Below, one piece after another: positions 20,959 through 51,343 of a stretch of DNA of 64,000 bases. Location of the stretch: contig NC_015562.1 of NCBI RefSeq assembly GCF_000214415.1, forward strand, positions 1,302,001 to 1,366,000, given 5' to 3'. Origin of the DNA: Methanotorris igneus Kol 5 (GTDB lineage: Archaea > AGJL01 > Methanococci > Methanococcales > Methanococcaceae). The translations under genes were made by a program, and so were the position numbers. Below the pieces are notes generated by a model. The model was given only the letters and a program-made list of their open reading frames with translations. It did no database searches and was not told where the DNA came from. Within the stretch, counting starts at the first letter, position 1, and every line of letters begins with the position of its first letter.

Positions 20959-20981
20959 GGCAAAATTTCTTGGATTTTGCC
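20959..20981. repeat. Dispersed GCAAAAT hairpin
   Basis: GGCAAAATttcttggATTTTGCC forms an 8-bp stem between the radical-SAM gene and the convergent CBS-domain gene. It is one copy of the window-wide hairpin family. The rest of 20860-21129 shows no gene. Confidence 0.7.
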
Positions 20982-23713: not shown

Positions 23714-25276
<1,563 letters not shown>

Positions 25277-32645: not shown

Positions 32646-32653
32646 TAAATATT

Positions 32654-32746
32654 AGGCAAAAACTCCTGTGGAGTTTTCACTGCTCGAAGCTTCGCTTCGA
32701 TTAGGCGAAATCAAAGATTTCACTGCTCGAACCTAACGGTTCGATG
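32654..32746. repeat. Tandem palindromic modules
   Basis: Four successive hairpins: AAAACTCctgtgGAGTTTT, CGAAGcttCGCTTCG, GAAATCaaaGATTTC and CGAACCtaacGGTTCG, joined by CACTGCTCGA twice. The last stem also appears nested in the second CRISPR array (CGAACCgtaaGGTTCG at 51079-51094). They sit between the 95-residue protein gene and the HAD gene. Confidence 0.7.
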
Positions 32747-36609: not shown

Positions 36610-38151
36610 ATGCAATTAAACTTAAAAAAGAAACTTTATACACTAATTTTTGTGATATTGGGGTTAATTTTATTGTATGCTATCTCTCCAATACTTCATC
36701 CTTTTTTCATGTTTTTTTATAAGAATCCATCAACAATTGAGTTAGGTTTTTTAGTCGTGGGAATTATCGTATTCTTAGCATATAGGCAGAGAGAAATTAA
36801 CAGAATTATGTATACCATCCTAATGCTCATTTTAGGGTATTTTGTTGTTTTATCGCCAGTGCTCTATATAGCAAATGCATATTCATTAACGACACTCCAA
36901 AAGGAAAATATTCCAAAAGATATTGAGAATTTTGATGGGTTAGAGTTTGATAATGGGGGAGGATTTTTAAGAATATTGCCAAAAAAGGTTGCAGAGACAT
37001 ATATGATCTCATCATTAGAATATCCAAGATACACAATAGACAGTGTTCATATAACAACATTCAACAACTCCATGTTTTGGTTTGCATATTTAGAGCCGGA
37101 TGGGTTATTTAATAGGGTAATACTCAAATCAAAAGGTATCTTTATGATTCCAGTTAACACAACCGAGAGAGTTGTGATAAGGGAGGAGAAAAATATTGAG
37201 TACACTCCAGGGCAATTAATCACTGATAACCTTTATTGGAAGTTGTATAGGGTTGATTACTTTGCTGACTATGGAAAGCCGAGAGTTGTTGTTAAAGAAA
37301 ATAAAATATACACAATAGTTCCACAAATAAAATATAGGTTCCATGGATTCTATACAACTCCATATTGGAGTGGGATTGTTGTTTTGGATGAAGAAGGAAA
37401 TATAAGATATTACTCAAAAGAAGAGGCACTGAAGAGATTTGGGGATTCCCCAATATTTCCAGAAAGTTTGGCAAGGAGGATTGTGGAGTCCCAAAACTAT
37501 TGGAAATCATCCCCAATAGCAAATATATTAAATCTCTGGTTTAAGCATGAAAATGAGATTGAGTTAGTTGATTCTGATGAGAATAAACAACCATACCTAA
37601 TTATGGTAGATAAAAAACCATATTGGGTACTTGCAGTTGAACCGTATGGTAGGGCTTATGGAATTTCAAGAATCTATGTTATAGGCATGGATGGAAATAT
37701 TATGCAATACAAATTTAGTGATCCAAAAATAGGGCCTATAAAAGGCATGGATTACGTGCAAAAATCCCTCCCAACTTACGATTGGGATAAGTTTGAAATT
37801 GTTGAACCATTGCCGATATTTGTGGATGGTAAATTATATTGGAGATATATAATTATCCCAAAATCAGGAGGGGGTATTTCAAAGATAGTTTTAGTTGATG
37901 TGGAAACTGGAGACGTTGAAATATTTAATTCCTATGATGAATACTCCTCATTTATAAAAAATGGGGGAACTGAGAGTATTAAAAAGGTTACTATTAAAGA
38001 TATTATAAAATACGAGAAAAATGGGAACACACATTGGTTGATTATCTTGAGCAATGGCTCTTATGTTGATTTGTCTGCTGGAGAGTTGAATATTGAGGGG
38101 ATTATTAAAATAAGCAAGTTAAAGGTTGGAGATGTCTATAATTCAAAATGA
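36610..38151 (+). CDS. Membrane protein with large extracytoplasmic domain, unknown
   Basis: A 513-residue protein. Three hydrophobic helices occupy about residues 10-95 (LIFVILGLILLYAISPI, LGFLVVGIIVFLAY, MYTILMLILGYFVVLSPVLY). About 400 residues follow with repeated beta-like units (IVVLDEEGNIRYYSKEEALK, IYVIGMDGNIMQYK, IVLVDVETGDVEIFNSYDEY), suggesting a propeller-like or PepSY-like extracytoplasmic fold. I do not recognise a named family. Tight linkage to hflX (one-base gap) implies co-translation. Confidence 0.8.
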   Translation: MQLNLKKKLYTLIFVILGLILLYAISPILHPFFMFFYKNPSTIELGFLVVGIIVFLAYRQREINRIMYTILMLILGYFVVLSPVLYIANAYSLTTLQKENIPKDIENFDGLEFDNGGGFLRILPKKVAETYMISSLEYPRYTIDSVHITTFNNSMFWFAYLEPDGLFNRVILKSKGIFMIPVNTTERVVIREEKNIEYTPGQLITDNLYWKLYRVDYFADYGKPRVVVKENKIYTIVPQIKYRFHGFYTTPYWSGIVVLDEEGNIRYYSKEEALKRFGDSPIFPESLARRIVESQNYWKSSPIANILNLWFKHENEIELVDSDENKQPYLIMVDKKPYWVLAVEPYGRAYGISRIYVIGMDGNIMQYKFSDPKIGPIKGMDYVQKSLPTYDWDKFEIVEPLPIFVDGKLYWRYIIIPKSGGGISKIVLVDVETGDVEIFNSYDEYSSFIKNGGTESIKKVTIKDIIKYEKNGNTHWLIILSNGSYVDLSAGELNIEGIIKISKLKVGDVYNSK

Positions 38152-38171
38152 AACCTTTATTTTCTCTTGAG

Positions 38172-38318
38172 TATAGTTGTTCGCCTTACAAATGCACTAA
38201 ATCCTCATTAAATTATAAGGGATAATTAACCTTTATTTGGAATTTTGCAATATAGTTTATTACCTTTAAAAAATTTGATTGCATCTAAATCCGTGCAAAA
38301 AATTGGCGAACAACTATA
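38172..38318. mobile_element. MITE-like element with 14-bp terminal inverted repeats
   Basis: TATAGTTGTTCGCC (38172-38185) and GGCGAACAACTATA (38305-38318) are perfect inverted ends of a 147-bp element with no ORF. Its left half (TTACAAATG, TCATTAAATTATAAGGGATA, ACCTTTATTTGGAAT) matches 471-530. It lies between the membrane-protein gene and the DUF447-type gene and probably carries or neighbours the latter's promoter. Confidence 0.8.
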
Positions 38319-38366
38319 GTTATTGCAAAATACTTTTTTTAGGAACACTATAGAATAAGGGATATT

Positions 38367-38987
38367 ATGATACATGAGGTTGTTATAACATCTGGGAAAA
38401 AGAATAAAGCACCGATAGGCATTTATTTTAGAGCAAAATCCGAAGGATTTTGCAACTCTACGCTTCGCTCCGATAAAGAAAAGGAAGTAGTATTGCATTT
38501 GTTTGAGGGTTCTCATACATATGAAAACCTAAAAAATGATGATTATTTTGTAGTAAATGTTTGCCATCCAATAGATATTGCAGAGGCGGTTTTGGACGAT
38601 GAGGATGATTATGGTTATTTGGATTGGAATGGCAAAGAATTACCTTATTTAAAAAATGCATACAAAATTTTTGTTGTTAAAATAAACAAAAGGAAATTTA
38701 TAACAAAGAGAGACAACTTTGGAGAGTCAAAACTTATGGTTGTTAACGGGGAAATTGTATTTGAGAAAGAATTGAACAATATAATAACACCCTACAACAG
38801 GGCAGATGGACTTTTGGTTGAGATGGCAGTCATTTACTCTCGACTAAATAATGAAAAAATAATAATGAAAAATGATGATAGAGAGGCAATGAAAAAAGAT
38901 ATGGAAAAATACTTCAAAATAATAAAAAAAGTAGGTTCAAAAAAACATGTTGATTTGGCAAAAAGATTTATGGAGTTAATTAAATAA
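38367..38987 (+). CDS. DUF447-type flavin-binding-like protein with inserted palindromic peptide
   Basis: A 206-residue protein: MIHEVVITSGKKNKAPIGIY at the start, then VVLHLFEGSHTYENLKNDDY and FVVNVCHPIDIAEAV, the pattern of DUF447 proteins, which adopt an FMN-binding split-barrel fold. Residues about 23-36 (AKSEGFCNSTLRSD) are encoded by a GCAAAATCC/GGATTTTGC hairpin and a CGCTTCGCTCC module. These are the same repeat modules that fill intergenic regions, inserted in frame between two conserved strands. The gene stays open throughout. It is convergent with prs with a three-base gap. Confidence 0.8.
   Translation: MIHEVVITSGKKNKAPIGIYFRAKSEGFCNSTLRSDKEKEVVLHLFEGSHTYENLKNDDYFVVNVCHPIDIAEAVLDDEDDYGYLDWNGKELPYLKNAYKIFVVKINKRKFITKRDNFGESKLMVVNGEIVFEKELNNIITPYNRADGLLVEMAVIYSRLNNEKIIMKNDDREAMKKDMEKYFKIIKKVGSKKHVDLAKRFMELIK
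38433..38474 (+). repeat. Palindromic module inserted in frame in a coding gene
   Basis: GCAAAATCCgaaGGATTTTGC (38433-38453), then AACTCTACGCTTCGCTCCGA. The length is 42 bases, a multiple of three, and it adds about 14 residues to the DUF447-type protein. The hairpin matches the intergenic GGCAAAA family, and the second part matches the CGTAGCGAAGCGGAG module at 40617-40631 in inverse orientation. Confidence 0.8.
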
Positions 38988-38990
38988 GAA

Positions 38991-39947
<957 letters not shown>

Positions 39948-40060
39948 TTAGGTTATGATGAATGTTATTCAAAATTTTAAGAAGGCATATAATAAAGTTA
40001 AAAATTTCCCACATTATAATTTTCCACTTAATTGTTGCTATAAATTTTTTAGGTGTTGTG

Positions 40061-40588
40061 ATGGAAGCGTTAGGATTGAAAGAATTTTTGGAAAATTGTG
40101 AAAAGTTGGTTATAATGGGGATAGGAAATGAGATGAAAGGTGATGATGGAGTTGGAATATATATTGTTAAAGAAATTGCCAAACGCTTTGGAAAAGACGT
40201 TAATGACATTAATAGTGAAGTTATAAAAATCAGTGAAAATATTATTTTATTAAACTGTGGAACCGTTCCAGAAAACTTTACAGATGTTTTGAAGAGAGAA
40301 AGCCCAACACACATTATAATGGTTGATGCTGCATTGATGAATGAGGAAATTGGAACAATAAAGGTAATAAATCCAGAAGATATTGCAGATGTTGGATTTT
40401 CCACACATGCATTGCCATTGTCAATAATTGTTAAGTACATTAAGAAATCTATAAATACCAAAATAATAGTAATAGGTATAGAGCCAAAAATCATAGATTT
40501 TGATAAGCCGTTGTCTGATGAGGTTAGACGATGTGCAGACAATTTTGTTGAATATTTGATTAAGATAATTAACACTATTTTTTGTTAG
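40061..40588 (+). CDS. hycI: Hydrogenase maturation protease HycI family
   Basis: A 175-residue endopeptidase that trims the C-terminus of the [NiFe]-hydrogenase large subunit after nickel insertion. It has IMGIGNEMKGDDGVGIYIVK (first acidic Ni-probe residue), HIIMVDAALMNEEIGTIKVI (second acidic ligand) and STHALPLSIIVKYI (His ligand). The HycI subgroup serves energy-converting hydrogenases (Eha/Ehb). The ATG at 40061 with GGTGTT upstream is chosen; the in-frame stretch before it is AT-rich. Confidence 0.86.
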   Translation: MEALGLKEFLENCEKLVIMGIGNEMKGDDGVGIYIVKEIAKRFGKDVNDINSEVIKISENIILLNCGTVPENFTDVLKRESPTHIIMVDAALMNEEIGTIKVINPEDIADVGFSTHALPLSIIVKYIKKSINTKIIVIGIEPKIIDFDKPLSDEVRRCADNFVEYLIKIINTIFC

Positions 40589-40611
40589 ATGTTAATCTTA
40601 AAAAATTTACG

Positions 40612-40656
40612 CTTATCGTAGCGAAGCGGAGAGCTGCGAAAACCATAAATTTTCGC
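40612..40656. repeat. Palindromic modules ahead of lonB
   Basis: CGTAGCGAAGCGGAG and GCGAAAAccataaatTTTTCGC (40636-40656) sit 24 bases before the lonB start. The first module is the inverse of the one inside the DUF447-type gene. Confidence 0.6.
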
Positions 40657-40679
40657 TCAATTTATTTAAGGTGGAATAT

Positions 40680-42617
40680 ATGGAAGTATTTTCAGTTAAG
40701 TTTAAGACTACAGAGGAATTGCCTGAACCTTCACCAAGGTTAATAGACCAAGTTATTGGTCAAGATGAGGCGGTTAAAGTAGTGTTAAGTGCAGTTAAAA
40801 ATAAAAGGCATGTCCTCCTTTTAGGAGATCCTGGAGTAGGAAAGTCAATGATAGTTAAGGCAGTTGGGGAAATATTGGATGAATTTGATAACTTTACACC
40901 ATATACCATAATAGCAAAACCAAATTTAAAAAATCCAGAAAAGCCAATAGTAGAACTTATAGAGGGAGAATATAAGGAAGATACTAAAGAGGAAAAAATA
41001 AGCATCCCTACACAGCCACCAAGTTTGATGACTTTATTTTTAATAATGATAGCATTTACTGTAATCTTATCATGGTTGATGGGGGGACTACCAGAGAGTA
41101 AAATGCTCGCTACCATAGCAATTGTGGCAATTGTTGGTTCTTTAATTGCCTTTGTATCTATTTTCTTAGGAGTTCTTGGAGCTACAAAATCATCAATGCC
41201 AAATGCTATAAACCCAGCGGATTTAAAACCAGTTGTGTTATATGAGTGCAAAAAAAGACCACTTGTGAGAGCAAGTGCATACAACGTAACAAAATTACTT
41301 GGAGATGTTAAGCACTGTCCATTAGGGGGAAGACCACCACTTGGAACCCCTCCACACAAAAGAATAGTCCTTGGAGCGATTCACGAGGCACATAAAGGAA
41401 TTTTGTATGTAGATGAGATAAAAACCATGCCACTTGAAGTTCAAGATTATATTTTAACAGCTCTCCAAGATAAACAACTTCAAATTAGTGGTAGAAACCC
41501 AAATTCAAGTGGAGCAACAGTCGAAACTAACCCAATACCATGTGATTTCATCTTAATAATGTCTGGGAACATGGATGACGTTCACAATTTAAGAGCCCCA
41601 TTATTGGATAGGATTGACTATAAGATAGTCCTAAAGAACAAAATGGACAATACCTTAGAAAATAGGGATAAATTATTGCAATTTATTGTCCAAGAGATAA
41701 GAAATAACAACTTAAATCCAATGACCTATGATGCGTGCTGTGAAATTGTCAAACTTGCCCAATTATTGGCAGGTTCAAGGGATAAATTGACATTGAGGTT
41801 GAGGAAATTATCAAACATTATTAAGATGGCAAATGATATTGCTCTTGGTAAGGATATAGAGGAGATTAAAGGCAATATAGAAAAGGATGAGTATAAGAGT
41901 ATTGGAAATAGCAACAAAAAGGTTTACATTACAGCAGAGCACGTTAGAAAGGTTATAGAAAGTGGAATTTACAGTTTATCAAAACAAGTAGCACTTGAAT
42001 ATTTAAGAGACTTTAAAAGATACAAACACATCGTTCCAAATGATGAACCAAAAGTTGGAATTATCTATGGTCTTGCTGTGCTTGGGGAAGATGGTTTGGG
42101 AGATGTAACAAAAATCATTACACAAATAGTAGATTCAAAGAATCCAGGAACTCACCTCCTAAACATATCTGGGGACTTGGCAAAGCATTCCATAACCCTT
42201 GCGTCAGCATTATCAAAAAAACTTATTGCAGAAGGAAAATTACCGTTACCTAAGAAGGATATTGACTTAACATCAAAAGAGATATATATCCAATTTAGCC
42301 AATCTTACTCAAAAATTGACGGGGATAGTGCAACAGCAGCAGCTTGCTTAAGCATAATCTCAGCATTGTTAGAGATTCCATTAAAGCAAGACTTTGCTAT
42401 AACTGGAAGTTTGGATTTGAGTGGCAATATTCTTGCAGTTGGGGGAATTAATGAAAAGATAAATGCTGCAAAGGAGTATGGATTTAAGAGGGTTATTATA
42501 CCTGAGGCAAATATGATTGATGTTATAGACCCTGAAGGGATAGAAATAATTCCAGTTAAAACCTTAGATGAGTTAATACCACTTGTCTTTGATTTAGATT
42601 CAATATCTAAAAATTAA
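40680..42617 (+). CDS. lonB: Archaeal membrane-bound Lon protease
   Basis: ATP-dependent membrane protease for protein quality control. The 645-residue protein has AAA+ Walker A GDPGVGKS (49-56), two transmembrane helices inserted in the nucleotide-binding domain (about 115-165), and GILYVDEIKTMPLEVQDYIL as Walker B. A C-terminal serine-lysine protease domain carries catalytic Ser in DGDSATAAACLS (near 550) and Lys in INEKINAAKEYG (near 593). The TM insertion defines the LonB type. The ATG at 40680 has AAGGTGG upstream. Confidence 0.95.
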   Translation: MEVFSVKFKTTEELPEPSPRLIDQVIGQDEAVKVVLSAVKNKRHVLLLGDPGVGKSMIVKAVGEILDEFDNFTPYTIIAKPNLKNPEKPIVELIEGEYKEDTKEEKISIPTQPPSLMTLFLIMIAFTVILSWLMGGLPESKMLATIAIVAIVGSLIAFVSIFLGVLGATKSSMPNAINPADLKPVVLYECKKRPLVRASAYNVTKLLGDVKHCPLGGRPPLGTPPHKRIVLGAIHEAHKGILYVDEIKTMPLEVQDYILTALQDKQLQISGRNPNSSGATVETNPIPCDFILIMSGNMDDVHNLRAPLLDRIDYKIVLKNKMDNTLENRDKLLQFIVQEIRNNNLNPMTYDACCEIVKLAQLLAGSRDKLTLRLRKLSNIIKMANDIALGKDIEEIKGNIEKDEYKSIGNSNKKVYITAEHVRKVIESGIYSLSKQVALEYLRDFKRYKHIVPNDEPKVGIIYGLAVLGEDGLGDVTKIITQIVDSKNPGTHLLNISGDLAKHSITLASALSKKLIAEGKLPLPKKDIDLTSKEIYIQFSQSYSKIDGDSATAAACLSIISALLEIPLKQDFAITGSLDLSGNILAVGGINEKINAAKEYGFKRVIIPEANMIDVIDPEGIEIIPVKTLDELIPLVFDLDSISKN

Positions 42618-44031: not shown

Positions 44032-44390
44032 CTCGCTAAAAATTTTTATTTTTTAGTTTACTAAATTTTCAGGCAATATTTTTTAATTTTAAGGATTTTT
44101 ATCAAATTTCGGAGGGTGCTTTATTTTGAAAGATTTGCATATTTAAATTTAAGGATTTATTGAGATTTTTGGATTTTAAGGAATAATAGGAATTATTTCA
44201 AATTTTCCCCGATTGATAGGGTTTATTTAACGATTTAAATAGATTTTAAAAAATTATTTCGAATTTAAACGATTTTTAGGGAAGTGCAGAGGTATATAAA
44301 TGAACACTGTTAATACCCCTTTGAAAATTAACGTCCCAAAAAGAAGCAAATAGAAACCTTTATATAGGAAAAAGAGCAAAATATTGTCCT
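44032..44390 (+). promoter_or_regulatory. CRISPR leader 1
   Basis: About 360 AT-rich bases directly before the first repeat, nearly identical to 50065-50424 before array 2. It contains two TATA boxes: GGTATATAAATG near 44291-44302 and TTTATATA at 44359-44366. The second is 25 bases from the first repeat, so pre-crRNA transcription probably begins at the repeat edge. The preceding 43795-44031 stretch holds only the UPF0147 promoter region. Confidence 0.85.
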
Positions 44391-45110
44391 GTTAAAATCA
44401 GACCCTTAGGGGGATGGAAATATTGTAAATTGGTTCAAAGATTATGGCATTGATGTGTTAAAATCAGACCCTTAGGGGGATGGAAATTTTCACACTTGTT
44501 TATTATGAAATCCATACAAATCTTGTTAAAATCAGACCCTTAGGGGGATGGAAATTAGTCGTAACATCTTCTTATAGTTTTATCGTTAAATAGTTAAAAT
44601 CAGACCCTTAGGGGGATGGAAATCAATTTTCCGTCAGATTAAAATTTTGAAATCATTATATCCGTTAAAATCAGACCCTTAGGGGGATGGAAATATCCCA
44701 CAGCGGTCTGATTTTAAAAAGTAAATTAACAGTTAAAATCAGACCCTTAGGGGATGGAAATTTCTGTGAAATTGAAACCGAAATACCATGGCAGTTAAAA
44801 TCAGACCCTTAGGGGGATGGAAATAGCGATAAAATCAATATCAAAAATAAAACAAAATCAAGTTAAAATCAACCCTTAGGGGTGGAAATTTTATATTTAT
44901 CTAAAAGAGGCATTGCTGAGCGAAGCGAAGCAATGCATCCCTTTTGATGAAACTTTTTTTAAAAGTTTCAATTAGAGCCTTAGGGGGATGAAGGGTTGCA
45001 TACTTCTTAATTAGTTCTATGATTGCATCACTTCCGTTAAAATCACCCTTAGGATGGAAATTTTTCTATTAATTTTTTAAGATTTTTTGATTTTTATGTT
45101 AAAATCAGCC
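44391..45110 (+). CRISPR. CRISPR array 1
   Basis: Seven clear repeats of 30-31 bases starting GTTAAAATCAGACC, with centre CTTAGGGGG and end GATGGAAAT, at 44391, 44457, 44525, 44593, 44664, 44732 (one G short) and 44794. Spacers are 32-40 bases. Repeats at 44862 (28 bases), 45036 (26 bases) and 45098 (truncated to GTTAAAATCAGCC) are progressively degenerate, as expected at the trailer end. A palindromic repeat interrupts the array at 44905-44975, followed by a half repeat. The repeat resembles the M. jannaschii type. No cas1/cas2/cas6 lie in the window. Confidence 0.97.
44905..44975. repeat. Palindromic composite inserted in CRISPR array 1
   Basis: AGAGGCATTGCTGAGCGAAG (stem GCATTGC/GCAATGC), ATCCC, then GATGAAACTTTTTTTaaaAGTTTCAATTAG. 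The inverse complement of this unit occurs at 26190-26262, so it is a genomic repeat that invaded the array rather than a spacer. Confidence 0.8.
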
Positions 45111-48200: not shown

Positions 48201-50059
48201 TGGCAATGGATGTTAAAGAAGGAGACTTAATATTAATTCCAAAAATTGAGTTTGAAGAAGAGGATATTGAGGCATTTGATTTATTAAAAGAATTCTCAAA
48301 AGATGAATTTAGAGAGTTTTGGGGCACTTTGAGAGTTAGGGGAATTAGTGATTGGATTAAAAATAATATTGATAAAAAATTAATTGGGGAGTTAAAATTA
48401 AACGACTATTTAAGATGCGATACAATTCCTTATGATAGATTATTGGAATTGCTAAAAAAATCAAACCTAACCATAGATGATGTTCCGAAGGATTGCTATG
48501 TTGCAGTTGAAGATGCTGAGTATATTAAAAGAATCATTAAAATTGAACCATTATTAAAATTGATTGGTTATTATCTCTCTGGGGGATATGCAAAGGAATC
48601 AAAAAGCATTTATCAGATAACCTTCTCAAATTCAGAAGAAGAAATTAGAGAAAATATAAAGAATGCAATAAAAGAGGCATTTGGGGATGTGAATGTTTAT
48701 GAAAATAAAGAAGATGGAAAATTAGCATTATCGTCAAGAGTTGTTTATTTATTCTTTACAAAAATATTGAAGATTGGAAAGAAATCAAAGAGAATTCCAA
48801 GTTTTGTATTTAAATTGCCAAAAGAAAAGGTTAGATTAATGTTATCATCTTATTTCGATGGAGATGGAATCGCTTTAAGAACAACACCAAAAATTGTAGT
48901 TTATAGTGCAAATAAAAGGTTGTTGGGAGATATTGATTTGCTATTGAATAGGTTTAAAATTAAAACATATTGGACAGTTGATAAAAATGCAGATGAAAGG
49001 GAAGGAAGATGCTATGAGGAAAAGGACAAAGAAACACCAAAATCAGTTGTTTATGCATTAAATATAACAGGATACTATTATGAAAGATTCTTCAAAGAAA
49101 TTGGATTTTCCTTAGAAAGAAAACAGAAAATATTTGAGTTGCACAAAAATAAAAAATGGAAAATTGATGAAAGTGATTGGGAATTTGGATGGTTATGTTC
49201 AGTTAGAAAGGTAGAAATAATAAAAGCAGAAGATGAATTTATTTACTCATTAAACGCTAAAAAATACCATACTGTAATAATAAACAATAATATATCCACA
49301 TTCCAATGTGATGGAGACGAAGACGCTTTATTCTTGCTTTTAGACGCGTTTTTAAACTTCTCTAAGAAATTCCTGCCAGATAAGAGAGGAGGACAGATGG
49401 ATGCTCCACTTGTATTGACAACGATATTAGACCCAAAAGAGGTTGACGGGGAAGTCCACAACATGGACACCATGTGGGAGTATCCATTGGAGTTTTATGA
49501 AAAGACCCTTGAAATGCCATCTCCAAAAGAAGTCAAAGAGTTTATGGAAATTGTTGAGGATAGGTTAGGAAAACCAGAGCAATATGAGGGGATTGGTTAC
49601 ACTCACGAAACAAGTAGAATTGACAATGGGCCATTAGTTTGTGCATATAAGACATTAGGTTCAATGCTTGAGAAAACAGAGGCACAATTAAGCGTTGCTA
49701 AGAAGATTAGGGCTACAGATGAGAGAGATGTTGCTGAGAAGGTTATTCAGTCCCACTTTATCCCTGATTTGATTGGAAACCTTAGGGCATTTTCAAGGCA
49801 AGGAGTTAGGTGTAAATGTGGAGCAAAATATAGAAGGGTTCCATTAAGGGGGATTTGCACAAAGTGCGGAAGCAACTTGATATTAACCGTTTCAAAAGGT
49901 GCTGTGGAGAAATACATGGAGGTTTCCCAGAAAATGGCAGAGAAATATAACGCAAATGACTACATAAAACAAAGATTGATGTTAATTAAGGAAGGTATTG
50001 ACTCATTGTTTGAAAATGAGAAGAATAAGCAAGTTAAGTTAAGTGATTTCTTCAGGTAA
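45239..50059 (+). CDS. polC: DNA polymerase D large subunit DP2, with intein
   Basis: Catalytic subunit of the replicative archaeal family-D polymerase. The 1606-residue precursor has N-terminal [20 protein letters not shown], zinc motifs [16 protein letters not shown] and [19 protein letters not shown], and the active-site region [20 protein letters not shown]. An acidic Lys/Glu-rich insert (about 285-320) is a low-complexity linker. The conserved ASKRRN-CDGDED block is split by a 477-residue intein at 47876-49306, leaving an extein of about 1129 residues. The start is ATG 45239 with GGGGATGA; ATG 45227 is possible. The gene is flanked on both sides by CRISPR arrays. Confidence 0.95.
47876..49306 (+). 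other. Intein in DP2 with LAGLIDADG endonuclease
   Basis: 477 residues from Cys ([14 protein letters not shown], block A) to Gln before CDGDED. Block B is [14 protein letters not shown]. Endonuclease blocks are [10 protein letters not shown] (block C, acidic residue replaced by Gly) and [12 protein letters not shown] (block E, Asp kept). Block F/G is [14 protein letters not shown] followed by C. The usual His-Asn end is Phe-Gln, so splicing chemistry relies on Gln cyclisation without the penultimate His. C-terminal Gln is known for the Pyrococcus abyssi PolII intein, as I recall. Confidence 0.93.
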
Positions 50060-50064
50060 TCTTC

Positions 50065-50424
50065 CCTCGCTGAAAATTTTTATTTTTTAGTTTACTAAAT
50101 TTTCAGGCAATATTTTTTAATTTTAAGGATTTTTATCAAATTTCGGAGGGTGCTTTATTTTGAAAGATTTGCATATTTAAATTTAAGGATTTATTGAGAT
50201 TTTTGGATTTTAAGGAATAATAGGAATTATTTCAAATTTTCCCCGATTGATAGGGTTTATTTAACGATTTAAATAGATTTTAAAAAATTATTTCGAATTT
50301 AAACGATTTTTAGGGAAGTGCAGAGGTATATAAATGAACACTGTTAATACCCCTTTGAAAATTAACGTCCCAAAAAGAAGCAAATAGAAACCTTTATATA
50401 GGAAAAAGAGCAAAATATTGTCCT
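50065..50424 (+). promoter_or_regulatory. CRISPR leader 2
   Basis: Near-identical copy of leader 1 beginning directly after the polC stop (shared from CTCGCT onward; A/G difference at the next base). Same TATA boxes, TTTATATA 25 bases before the first repeat. Confidence 0.85.
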
Positions 50425-51343
50425 GTTAAAATCAGACCCTTAGGGGGATGGAAATATTGTAAATTGGTTCAAAGATTATGGCATTGATGTGTTAAAATCA
50501 GACCCTTAGGGGGATGGAAATTTTCACACTTGTTTATTATGAAATCCATACAAATCTTGTTAAAATCAGACCCTTAGGGGGATGGAAATTAGTCGTAACA
50601 TCTTCTTATAGTTTTATCGTTAAATAGTTAAAATCAGACCCTTAGGGGGATGGAAATCAATTTTCCGTCAGATTAAAATTTTGAAATCATTATATCCGTT
50701 AAAATCAGACCCTTAGGGGGATGGAAATTAAATCCCCATCATCATCAATCCAATATGGTAAGCGTTGTCGTTAAAATCAGACCCTTAGGGGGATGGAAAT
50801 TAAATCCCCATCATCATCAATCCAATATGGTAAGCGTTGTCGTTAAAATCAGACCCTTAGGGGGATGGAAATACATTATATTAACACTTTGCGCTTGCCA
50901 GATAAAATTGTTAAAATCAGACCCTTAGGGGGATGGAAATGTTTTTAAAGAAAAAAAAGTTTAAAGTTTAAAGGGGAATTAATATTCGTTAAAATCAGCC
51001 CTTGGGATGGAAATTTTATTTTTACCTAAAAGAGGCACTGCCGAGCGTAGCGAGGCAGTGCATCCCTTTTGATGAAATCGAACCGTAAGGTTCGAGCTGC
51101 AAAACCGACAGGTTTTGCTTAACTTTTCTAAAGTTTCAATTAGAGCCATAGGGGGATGGAAATGAAAGTATTTAATTGAATATTAAAGTTAAAATCAGGC
51201 CATTGTGGGAATTATTTTCAAAAAAAATTTAATCAAACCAAAAATCAAAATATTTAAATATATAAATACCAATTAAAAAAATAAAAAATTATTGAGAAAT
51301 GCAAAAGCAACAAGTTAAAATAAAATCATTGTTGGATGGAAAT
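50425..51343 (+). CRISPR. CRISPR array 2
   Basis: Eight full 31-base repeats at 50425, 50491, 50559, 50627, 50698, 50770, 50842 and 50910. Degenerate repeats follow at 50988 (27 bases), about 51146, 51188 (truncated) and 51314-51343. Spacers 1-4 are the same as in array 1. Spacers 5 and 6 (50729-50769 and 50801-50841) are identical to each other. A nested palindromic element lies at 51028-51145. The last degenerate repeat overlaps the 3-prime end of the neighbouring CARF-HEPN pseudogene. Confidence 0.97.
51028..51145. repeat. Nested palindromic composite in CRISPR array 2
   Basis: Starts AGAGGCACTGCCGAGCGTAG (stem GCACTGCC/GGCAGTGC, 51035-51061), ATCCC, GATGAAA. Two extra hairpins are then inserted, CGAACCgtaaGGTTCG and GCAAAACCgacaGGTTTTGC, before CTTTTCTAAAGTTTCAATTA resumes. 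It is homologous to 44905-44975, with paired changes in both arms of the first stem. Confidence 0.8.

What the first reader, a model, noticed from the sequence alone, without database searches (positions are those of the whole stretch)
38433..38474. Palindromic repeat module inserted in frame inside a protein gene
A 42-bp stretch holding GCAAAATCCgaaGGATTTTGC and a CGCTTCGCTCC module lies inside the DUF447-type gene. It adds about 14 residues (AKSEGFCNSTLRSD) between the conserved pieces APIGIYF and EVVLHLFEGS. The same modules are intergenic elsewhere in the window. This resembles Rickettsia palindromic elements, which invade coding sequences, but in an archaeon. A repeat that can live in both coding and non-coding DNA may be an undescribed selfish element or a source of new protein segments.
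Basis: partly seen in the sequence, partly recalled or inferred. Interest (0 to 1): 0.85.

Follow-up and report, generated by a model that had tools for sequence, protein, structure and literature searches.

The report
Mobile hairpin DNA inside archaeal genes
A 45-letter hairpin-forming repeat has inserted itself, without breaking the reading frame, into a protein gene of a heat-loving methane-producing archaeon; the same repeat family has done this in at least a dozen other genes of related species and was moving recently, although such gene-invading repeats were already known in Rickettsia and in one related archaeon.

Summary
The DUF447 gene (38367-38987, +) carries an in-frame 45-nt insert (38430-38474; RAKSEGFCNSTLRSD in the protein) that is absent from all 17 orthologues compared, including a congener with a clean empty site in the DNA. 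It is one copy of a dispersed hairpin element: 82 copies in this genome and copies in 16 of 36 genomes of the order, with stem changes that preserve pairing. Verified in-frame copies sit in about a dozen other genes (HemC, CobN, an aminotransferase, a glycosyltransferase and others). The net insert is typically exactly 15 codons, in several frames and both orientations. One IS1595 transposase copy has the 45-bp element while two almost identical IS copies in the same genome lack it, so it moved recently and left no target duplication longer than 1 bp. How it moves is unknown; its presence tracks TnpB-bearing IS605-type elements, and the host lacks a Y1 transposase.

The parts
38430..38474 (+). 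Element copy: 45-nt (15-codon) in-frame insert AGAGCAAAATCCGAAGGATTTTGCAACTCTACGCTTCGCTCCGAT (ends may slide one base to 38429-38473)
   Evidence: DNA-level empty site in congener G021; absent from 17 orthologues; model R1 hit 38427-38475, 63.3 bits, E=3.6e-16
38433..38453 (+). Hairpin stem of the element, GCAAAATCC gaa GGATTTTGC
   Evidence: Pairing kept by two-sided changes across 15 family members: 97% of cells paired, 18 both-side changes, 0/500 shuffles; z -2.2 as RNA, -2.9 as DNA
38454..38474 (+). Conserved 3' module of the element, [A/G]CTCTnCGCTTCGCTnCGAT
   Evidence: Alignments A1/A2; genome pattern search
38367..38987 (+). Host gene, DUF447 protein (206 aa), reading frame kept through the insert
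   Evidence: PF04289 5e-16 and PF20766 1.9e-11; dN 0.08, dS 0.53 against G021 outside the insert
40614..40662 (-). Second full element copy, at the 5' edge of the next + strand ORF (not internal to it)
   Evidence: R1 64.9 bits, E=1.2e-16
32650..32702 (+). Third element copy, GAAGC-TTC-GCTTC subtype
   Evidence: R1 44.5 bits, E=1.5e-10
51076..51124 (-). Fourth element copy, downstream of the second CRISPR array
   Evidence: R1 41.3 bits, E=1.3e-9
25196..25216 (.). Look-alike, not the same family: GGCAAAATCC..GGATTTTGCC palindrome; similar ones at 20960, 26410 and 30408
   Evidence: outer G..C pair, no 3' module

Best explanation
The insert is a copy of a dispersed, non-autonomous hairpin element with a modal unit of 45 nt: one strong stem-loop followed by a conserved ~20-nt module. 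SHOWN: it inserts as a precise unit with no target duplication beyond 1-2 bp of ambiguity; the stem is kept by compensatory changes; it was mobile recently; inside genes it persists when its length is a multiple of three and the frame is open, adding typically 15 residues (sometimes two units, 30) at positions where the orthologues have none. INFERRED: it spreads selfishly, through its hairpin, by a machinery supplied in trans. Copies in genes are tolerated passengers, kept because the peptide falls in permissive positions such as a surface turn, not because the peptide does something: the peptide differs by frame and strand. GUESSED: TnpB-bearing IS605-type elements carry it between genomes and may help it move.
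For: Empty sites: DUF447 in 17 orthologues and at DNA level; carbamoyltransferase at DNA level; 12 host genes beyond DUF447 aligned with element-free orthologues. Same peptide in the same frame in DUF447 (AKSEGFCNSTLRSD), carbamoyltransferase (AKSKGFCGSSLRSD) and HemC (TKSFGFCNSSLRSD). Recent move: IS1595 copies at C1:625041 and 770302 match the excised sequence at ~100% over 257 nt, and copy 981743 has exactly 45 bp more (family confirmed). Nested 45 + 45 nt in TnpB. Stem covariation. Copies: 82 in G000, 81 in G020, 22-25 in three genomes, 5 in one, 0 in 16 others of the family; 16 of 36 genomes in the order. Presence against TnpB: 15 both, 1 R1 only, 2 TnpB only, 18 neither, Fisher p=5e-7; IS1595 control p=0.30.
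Against: No mobilising enzyme identified: Y1/RAYT transposase is absent from G000 and the left flanks share no target tetranucleotide (my reading). The TnpB correlation ignores phylogeny. Copies vary a lot in sequence, so some of the 'family' may be convergent hairpins. In the gene shared by G025 and G028 the element is better conserved than its flanks, which could mean gene conversion, repeated insertion or selection rather than a neutral passenger. Translation of the inserted residues was not observed.
Confidence: 0.9

Rival explanations
1. The 15 residues are an ordinary lineage-specific loop of DUF447 that merely looks palindromic.
For: It lies in a turn between two strands, where indels are common (G020, G013 and G017 have indels elsewhere).
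Against: Full element match E=3.6e-16; the same unit occurs in unrelated genes and between genes; the congener at 86% nt identity lacks exactly 45 nt.
Confidence: 0.02
2. The copies in genes are domesticated: the inserted peptide or the RNA hairpin has a selected function, for example in regulation or protein interaction.
For: Element better conserved than flanks at a shared site in G025/G028; same peptide type in three genes.
Against: At least five different reading frames and both strands are used, so no single peptide is conserved; homologues work without it; also found in inteins and transposases.
Confidence: 0.08
3. The element is an end hairpin of IS200/IS605-type transposons that spreads REP-like through the Y1 transposase.
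For: Copies lie in or beside TnpB genes in G009, G010, G016, G021, G025 and near a Y1 gene in G021; no TSD, as in IS605 transposition; presence correlates with TnpB.
Against: In TnpB it is a 45-nt insertion absent from other TnpB copies, so not an intrinsic end; no Y1 in G000 despite recent movement and 82 copies; no common target tetranucleotide.
Confidence: 0.15
4. Copies arise by replication template switching or gene conversion from existing palindromes, without a dedicated enzyme.
For: Loop inversion (GAA/TTC) at shared sites, nested insertion into a stem, and head-to-tail arrays.
Against: Clean 45-nt insertion of a whole unit into unrelated sequence with at most 1 bp of microhomology.
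Confidence: 0.2

Closest known systems
Methanocaldococcus jannaschii palindromic repeats (Suyama, Lathe and Bork 2005, FEBS Lett 579:5281)
   Same: Same order of archaea; palindromic; some copies fused in frame into protein genes (PMC2229807, PMC2996958). Family R1 found here has 14 matches in the genome whose 1,664,970-bp chromosome fits M. jannaschii, with coding copies in TnpB, an intein-bearing helicase and an ATPase.
   Different: The original paper is not held, so sequence identity with its groups was not tested. From memory its units average ~100 bp and are described as old; here the unit is 45 nt and at least one copy is very recent.
Rickettsia palindromic elements (RPE) and Wolbachia counterparts
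   Same: Hairpin repeats both between genes and in frame inside conserved genes, absent from orthologues, in housekeeping genes.
   Different: RPEs are ~105-150 bp (PMC2229807, PMC10969869), bacterial, and reported with a conserved peptide; this one is 45 nt, archaeal, and used in at least five frames.
REP elements and RAYTs
   Same: Short dispersed hairpins, arrays, no enzyme of their own.
   Different: REPs are extragenic and depend on a Y1-type transposase, which G000 lacks.
MITEs
   Same: Small, non-autonomous, sometimes in frame.
   Different: No terminal inverted repeats spanning the unit and no target duplication at the fresh site.

Membership tests
Protein-coding palindromic elements (general kind: RPE, WPE, M. 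jannaschii repeats) | Repeated hairpin sequence present in both intergenic and coding DNA | tested here: met
   131 copies mapped in six genomes, 22 of them internal to long ORFs
Protein-coding palindromic elements (general kind: RPE, WPE, M. jannaschii repeats) | In-frame insertion in conserved genes, absent from orthologues | tested here: met
   DUF447 and 12 further genes
Protein-coding palindromic elements (general kind: RPE, WPE, M. jannaschii repeats) | Inserted residues are translated | not testable with these tools
   No transcript or proteome data available
Rickettsia palindromic element (RPE) | Length about 105-150 bp | tested here: not met
   Net insert 45 nt at DNA-level empty sites
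Rickettsia palindromic element (RPE) | Sequence homology to RPE families | not tested
   No RPE sequences fetched; no Rfam match
M. jannaschii palindromic repeats (Suyama 2005) | Found in M. jannaschii with a few coding copies | tested here: met
   G025 (1,664,970 bp; identity inferred from length): 14 hits; of six examined three are inside ORFs
M. jannaschii palindromic repeats (Suyama 2005) | Sequence match to the published groups | not testable with these tools
   Paper not held
REP/RAYT system | Y1 (RAYT) transposase in the genome | tested here: not met
   PF01797 absent from G000, present in G021
MITE | Target site duplication | tested here: not met
   Fresh IS1595 insertion: at most 1 bp

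The most novel reading that the evidence does not exclude
A currently mobile 45-nt hairpin unit, moved by an undescribed mechanism without target duplication and carried between species on TnpB-bearing insertion sequences, adds residues to proteins across the Methanococcales in fixed steps of 15.
Probability: 0.35. Interest if true: 0.8.

Novelty: new member of a known kind. Interest (0 to 1): 0.62.

Why it matters
How gene-invading palindromes spread has been open since they were found in Rickettsia in 2000. Here an almost pristine before/after pair exists in one genome (IS1595 copies), the unit is exactly defined (45 nt), and the family is patchy across closely related, partly cultivable archaea, so the mechanism and its effect on proteins become testable. 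It also shows in-frame invasion of at least a dozen archaeal genes, more than the earlier single-species report as I recall it.

Tried and rejected
The palindrome alone as family marker was rejected: 33 of 35 exact copies are another family. Y1 transposase as driver was weakened. Target duplication of 3 bp (ATT), suggested by the aminotransferase and the glycosyltransferase sites, was rejected by the IS1595 and TnpB sites. Element as intrinsic IS605 end was rejected by element-free TnpB copies. Selection for open frames: non-coding copies have 3.5 of 6 frames open against 3.1 in dinucleotide shuffles and 2.7 in random genomic 45-mers, only a mild excess. Single-sequence AlphaFold model of the DUF447 protein was too poor to use (pLDDT 46). 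Papers on Methanotorris repeats: none relevant.

Full report
What is there. The gene at 38367-38987 (+) encodes a DUF447 protein (PF04289 and PF20766). It contains the palindrome GCAAAATCCgaaGGATTTTGC and the CGCTTCGCTCC module. Compared with 17 orthologues from four genera of the GTDB family, only this protein has the extra RAKSEGFCNSTLRSD. The congener G021 is 85% identical in protein and lacks exactly 45 nt at this place. The insert is therefore 38430-38474, 15 codons, in frame. In solved DUF447 structures (2ptf, 2nr4) the place falls between the segments aPiGvylkdk and evvlhlyegsht, which I read as a strand-turn-strand (inference). Outside the insert dN/dS between the two species is 0.08/0.53, so the gene is under purifying selection, though much of that comparison may predate the insertion.

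What family. Only 2 of the 35 exact genome copies of the palindrome lack the outer G..C pair; the other 33 are GGCAAAATCC..GGATTTTGCC, and the examined ones are mostly embedded in intergenic mosaics with CGTATA-type borders. The in-gene copy belongs to a composite element, stem-loop plus [A/G]CTCTnCGCTTCGCTnCGAT. Its stem varies by paired changes: 97% of cells paired, 18 two-sided changes, covariation score above all 500 shuffles and far above all slid controls. A covariance model (R1) finds 82 copies in this genome, 81 in G020 (another genus), 25, 23, 22 and 5 in G009, G016, G021 and G010, and none in 16 others of the family. In the order, 16 of 36 genomes have it at E<=1e-4. Only the 150 best candidates per genome are scored, so counts are lower bounds.

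Other coding copies. ORF mapping, Pfam and alignment with element-free orthologues (DNA for one) give in-frame insertions in: a carbamoyltransferase and a radical SAM protein (G000); a class I/II aminotransferase, porphobilinogen deaminase, a Radical_SAM_N protein, CobN, a DEAD helicase, a CCG/iron-sulphur protein, a metallo-beta-lactamase-fold protein, a polyferredoxin and an unknown protein (G020); and a glycosyltransferase (G010). The helicase, unknown-protein and metallo-beta-lactamase junctions are less exact than the rest. Internal copies without such an orthologue alignment include an archaeal ATPase (G021), a Hef-type helicase-nuclease and an intein in a T2SSE protein (G020), and an intein and an ATPase in G025. 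The net gain is 15 residues in DUF447, carbamoyltransferase, aminotransferase, glycosyltransferase, the Radical_SAM_N protein and CobN, about 15 in porphobilinogen deaminase, and 30 in the polyferredoxin. Sense and antisense and at least five frames are used. The sense frame that begins with the TNN stop of the element's 5' end is almost always closed (5% open in non-coding copies) and I saw no coding copy using it.

Recent movement. An IS1595-type copy at C1:981743 contains the element between ACTG and TGG; two other copies in the same genome (625041, 770302) match the sequence with the 45 bp removed at about 100% over 257 nt (family confirmed by PF12762). This fixes the unit at 45 bp with at most one base of ambiguity, so there is no target duplication of 2 bp or more. 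Here the element brings a TAA and interrupts the transposase ORF. In TnpB genes one can read the stages: no element (L256-L258, L270), one 45-nt palindrome of a related subtype (L255, L260, L263), and a second 45-nt R1 element nested in the stem of the first (L253 G021, L254 G016, L271 G025).

How it works. Best reading: a selfish, non-autonomous hairpin element mobilised in trans; 45 nt happens to be 15 codons, so copies that land in genes in an open frame add a short peptide and survive in permissive positions. Steps shown: precise insertion, recent activity, structural constraint, in-frame tolerance. Steps inferred: selfish spread, neutrality of the peptide, translation. Unknown: the enzyme, and whether the intermediate is DNA or RNA. 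Y1 transposase is absent from G000. Presence of the family follows presence of a TnpB subfamily across 36 genomes (15/1/2/18, p=5e-7), whereas IS1595 does not (3/13/1/19, p=0.30), and several copies lie inside or next to TnpB elements. This may mean IS605-type elements are vehicles, but phylogeny is not corrected for. Orthologous copies with reverse-complemented loops (GAA/TTC) in G025/G028 and in TnpB suggest that the hairpin flips in place.

What is known. In-frame palindromic repeats are known in Rickettsia, Wolbachia and the archaeon M. jannaschii (PMC2229807, PMC2996958, PMC10969869). The M. jannaschii paper is not held. Since R1 has 14 copies in the genome that fits M. jannaschii, the family is probably related to those repeats, and I file the finding as a new member of a known kind. 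No Rfam family matches at 38000-41000. New here, as far as I could check: the range across genera, the number and variety of coding copies, the exact 45-nt unit, the fresh insertion, nesting, and the TnpB association.

Noticed in passing
window 38172-38318: A ~147-bp sequence with perfect 14-bp inverted ends TATAGTTGTTCGCC...GGCGAACAACTATA lies directly upstream of the DUF447 gene; a related left part is at 460-534. It looks like a MITE; similar TATAGTCGTGTGCG ends flank many GGCAAAA palindrome mosaics in the fetched loci.
   Followed up: partly
G000 genome, 33 sites such as window 25196-25216: A second palindrome family, GGCAAAATCCnnnGGATTTTGCC (plus GGCAAAACCC versions), in intergenic mosaics with CGTATA borders; its exact core is absent from the 21 other genomes of the family searched.
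   Followed up: partly
window 44032-44842 and 50066-50958: Two CRISPR arrays with the same repeat share a 300-bp identical upstream stretch and several identical first spacers, suggesting a recent duplication.
   Followed up: no
G025 (L236) and G028 (L180): The same ATPase gene carries the element at the same site; the element is almost identical apart from a reverse-complemented loop and one end base, while the flanks are more diverged.
   Followed up: partly
L253, L254, L271 (TnpB C-termini): A 45-nt element nested inside the stem of another 45-nt element within TnpB genes of three genomes.
   Followed up: yes
G020 L126 and G025 L237: Elements of this family sit inside inteins (T2SSE protein and DEAD helicase), a mobile element within a mobile element.
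   Followed up: no
G000 e.g. C1:1022177-1022272, 49440-49535, 1461416-1461511: Head-to-tail arrays of elements whose matches overlap by 4 bases, as if the 3' end of one copy is a favoured site for the next.
   Followed up: no
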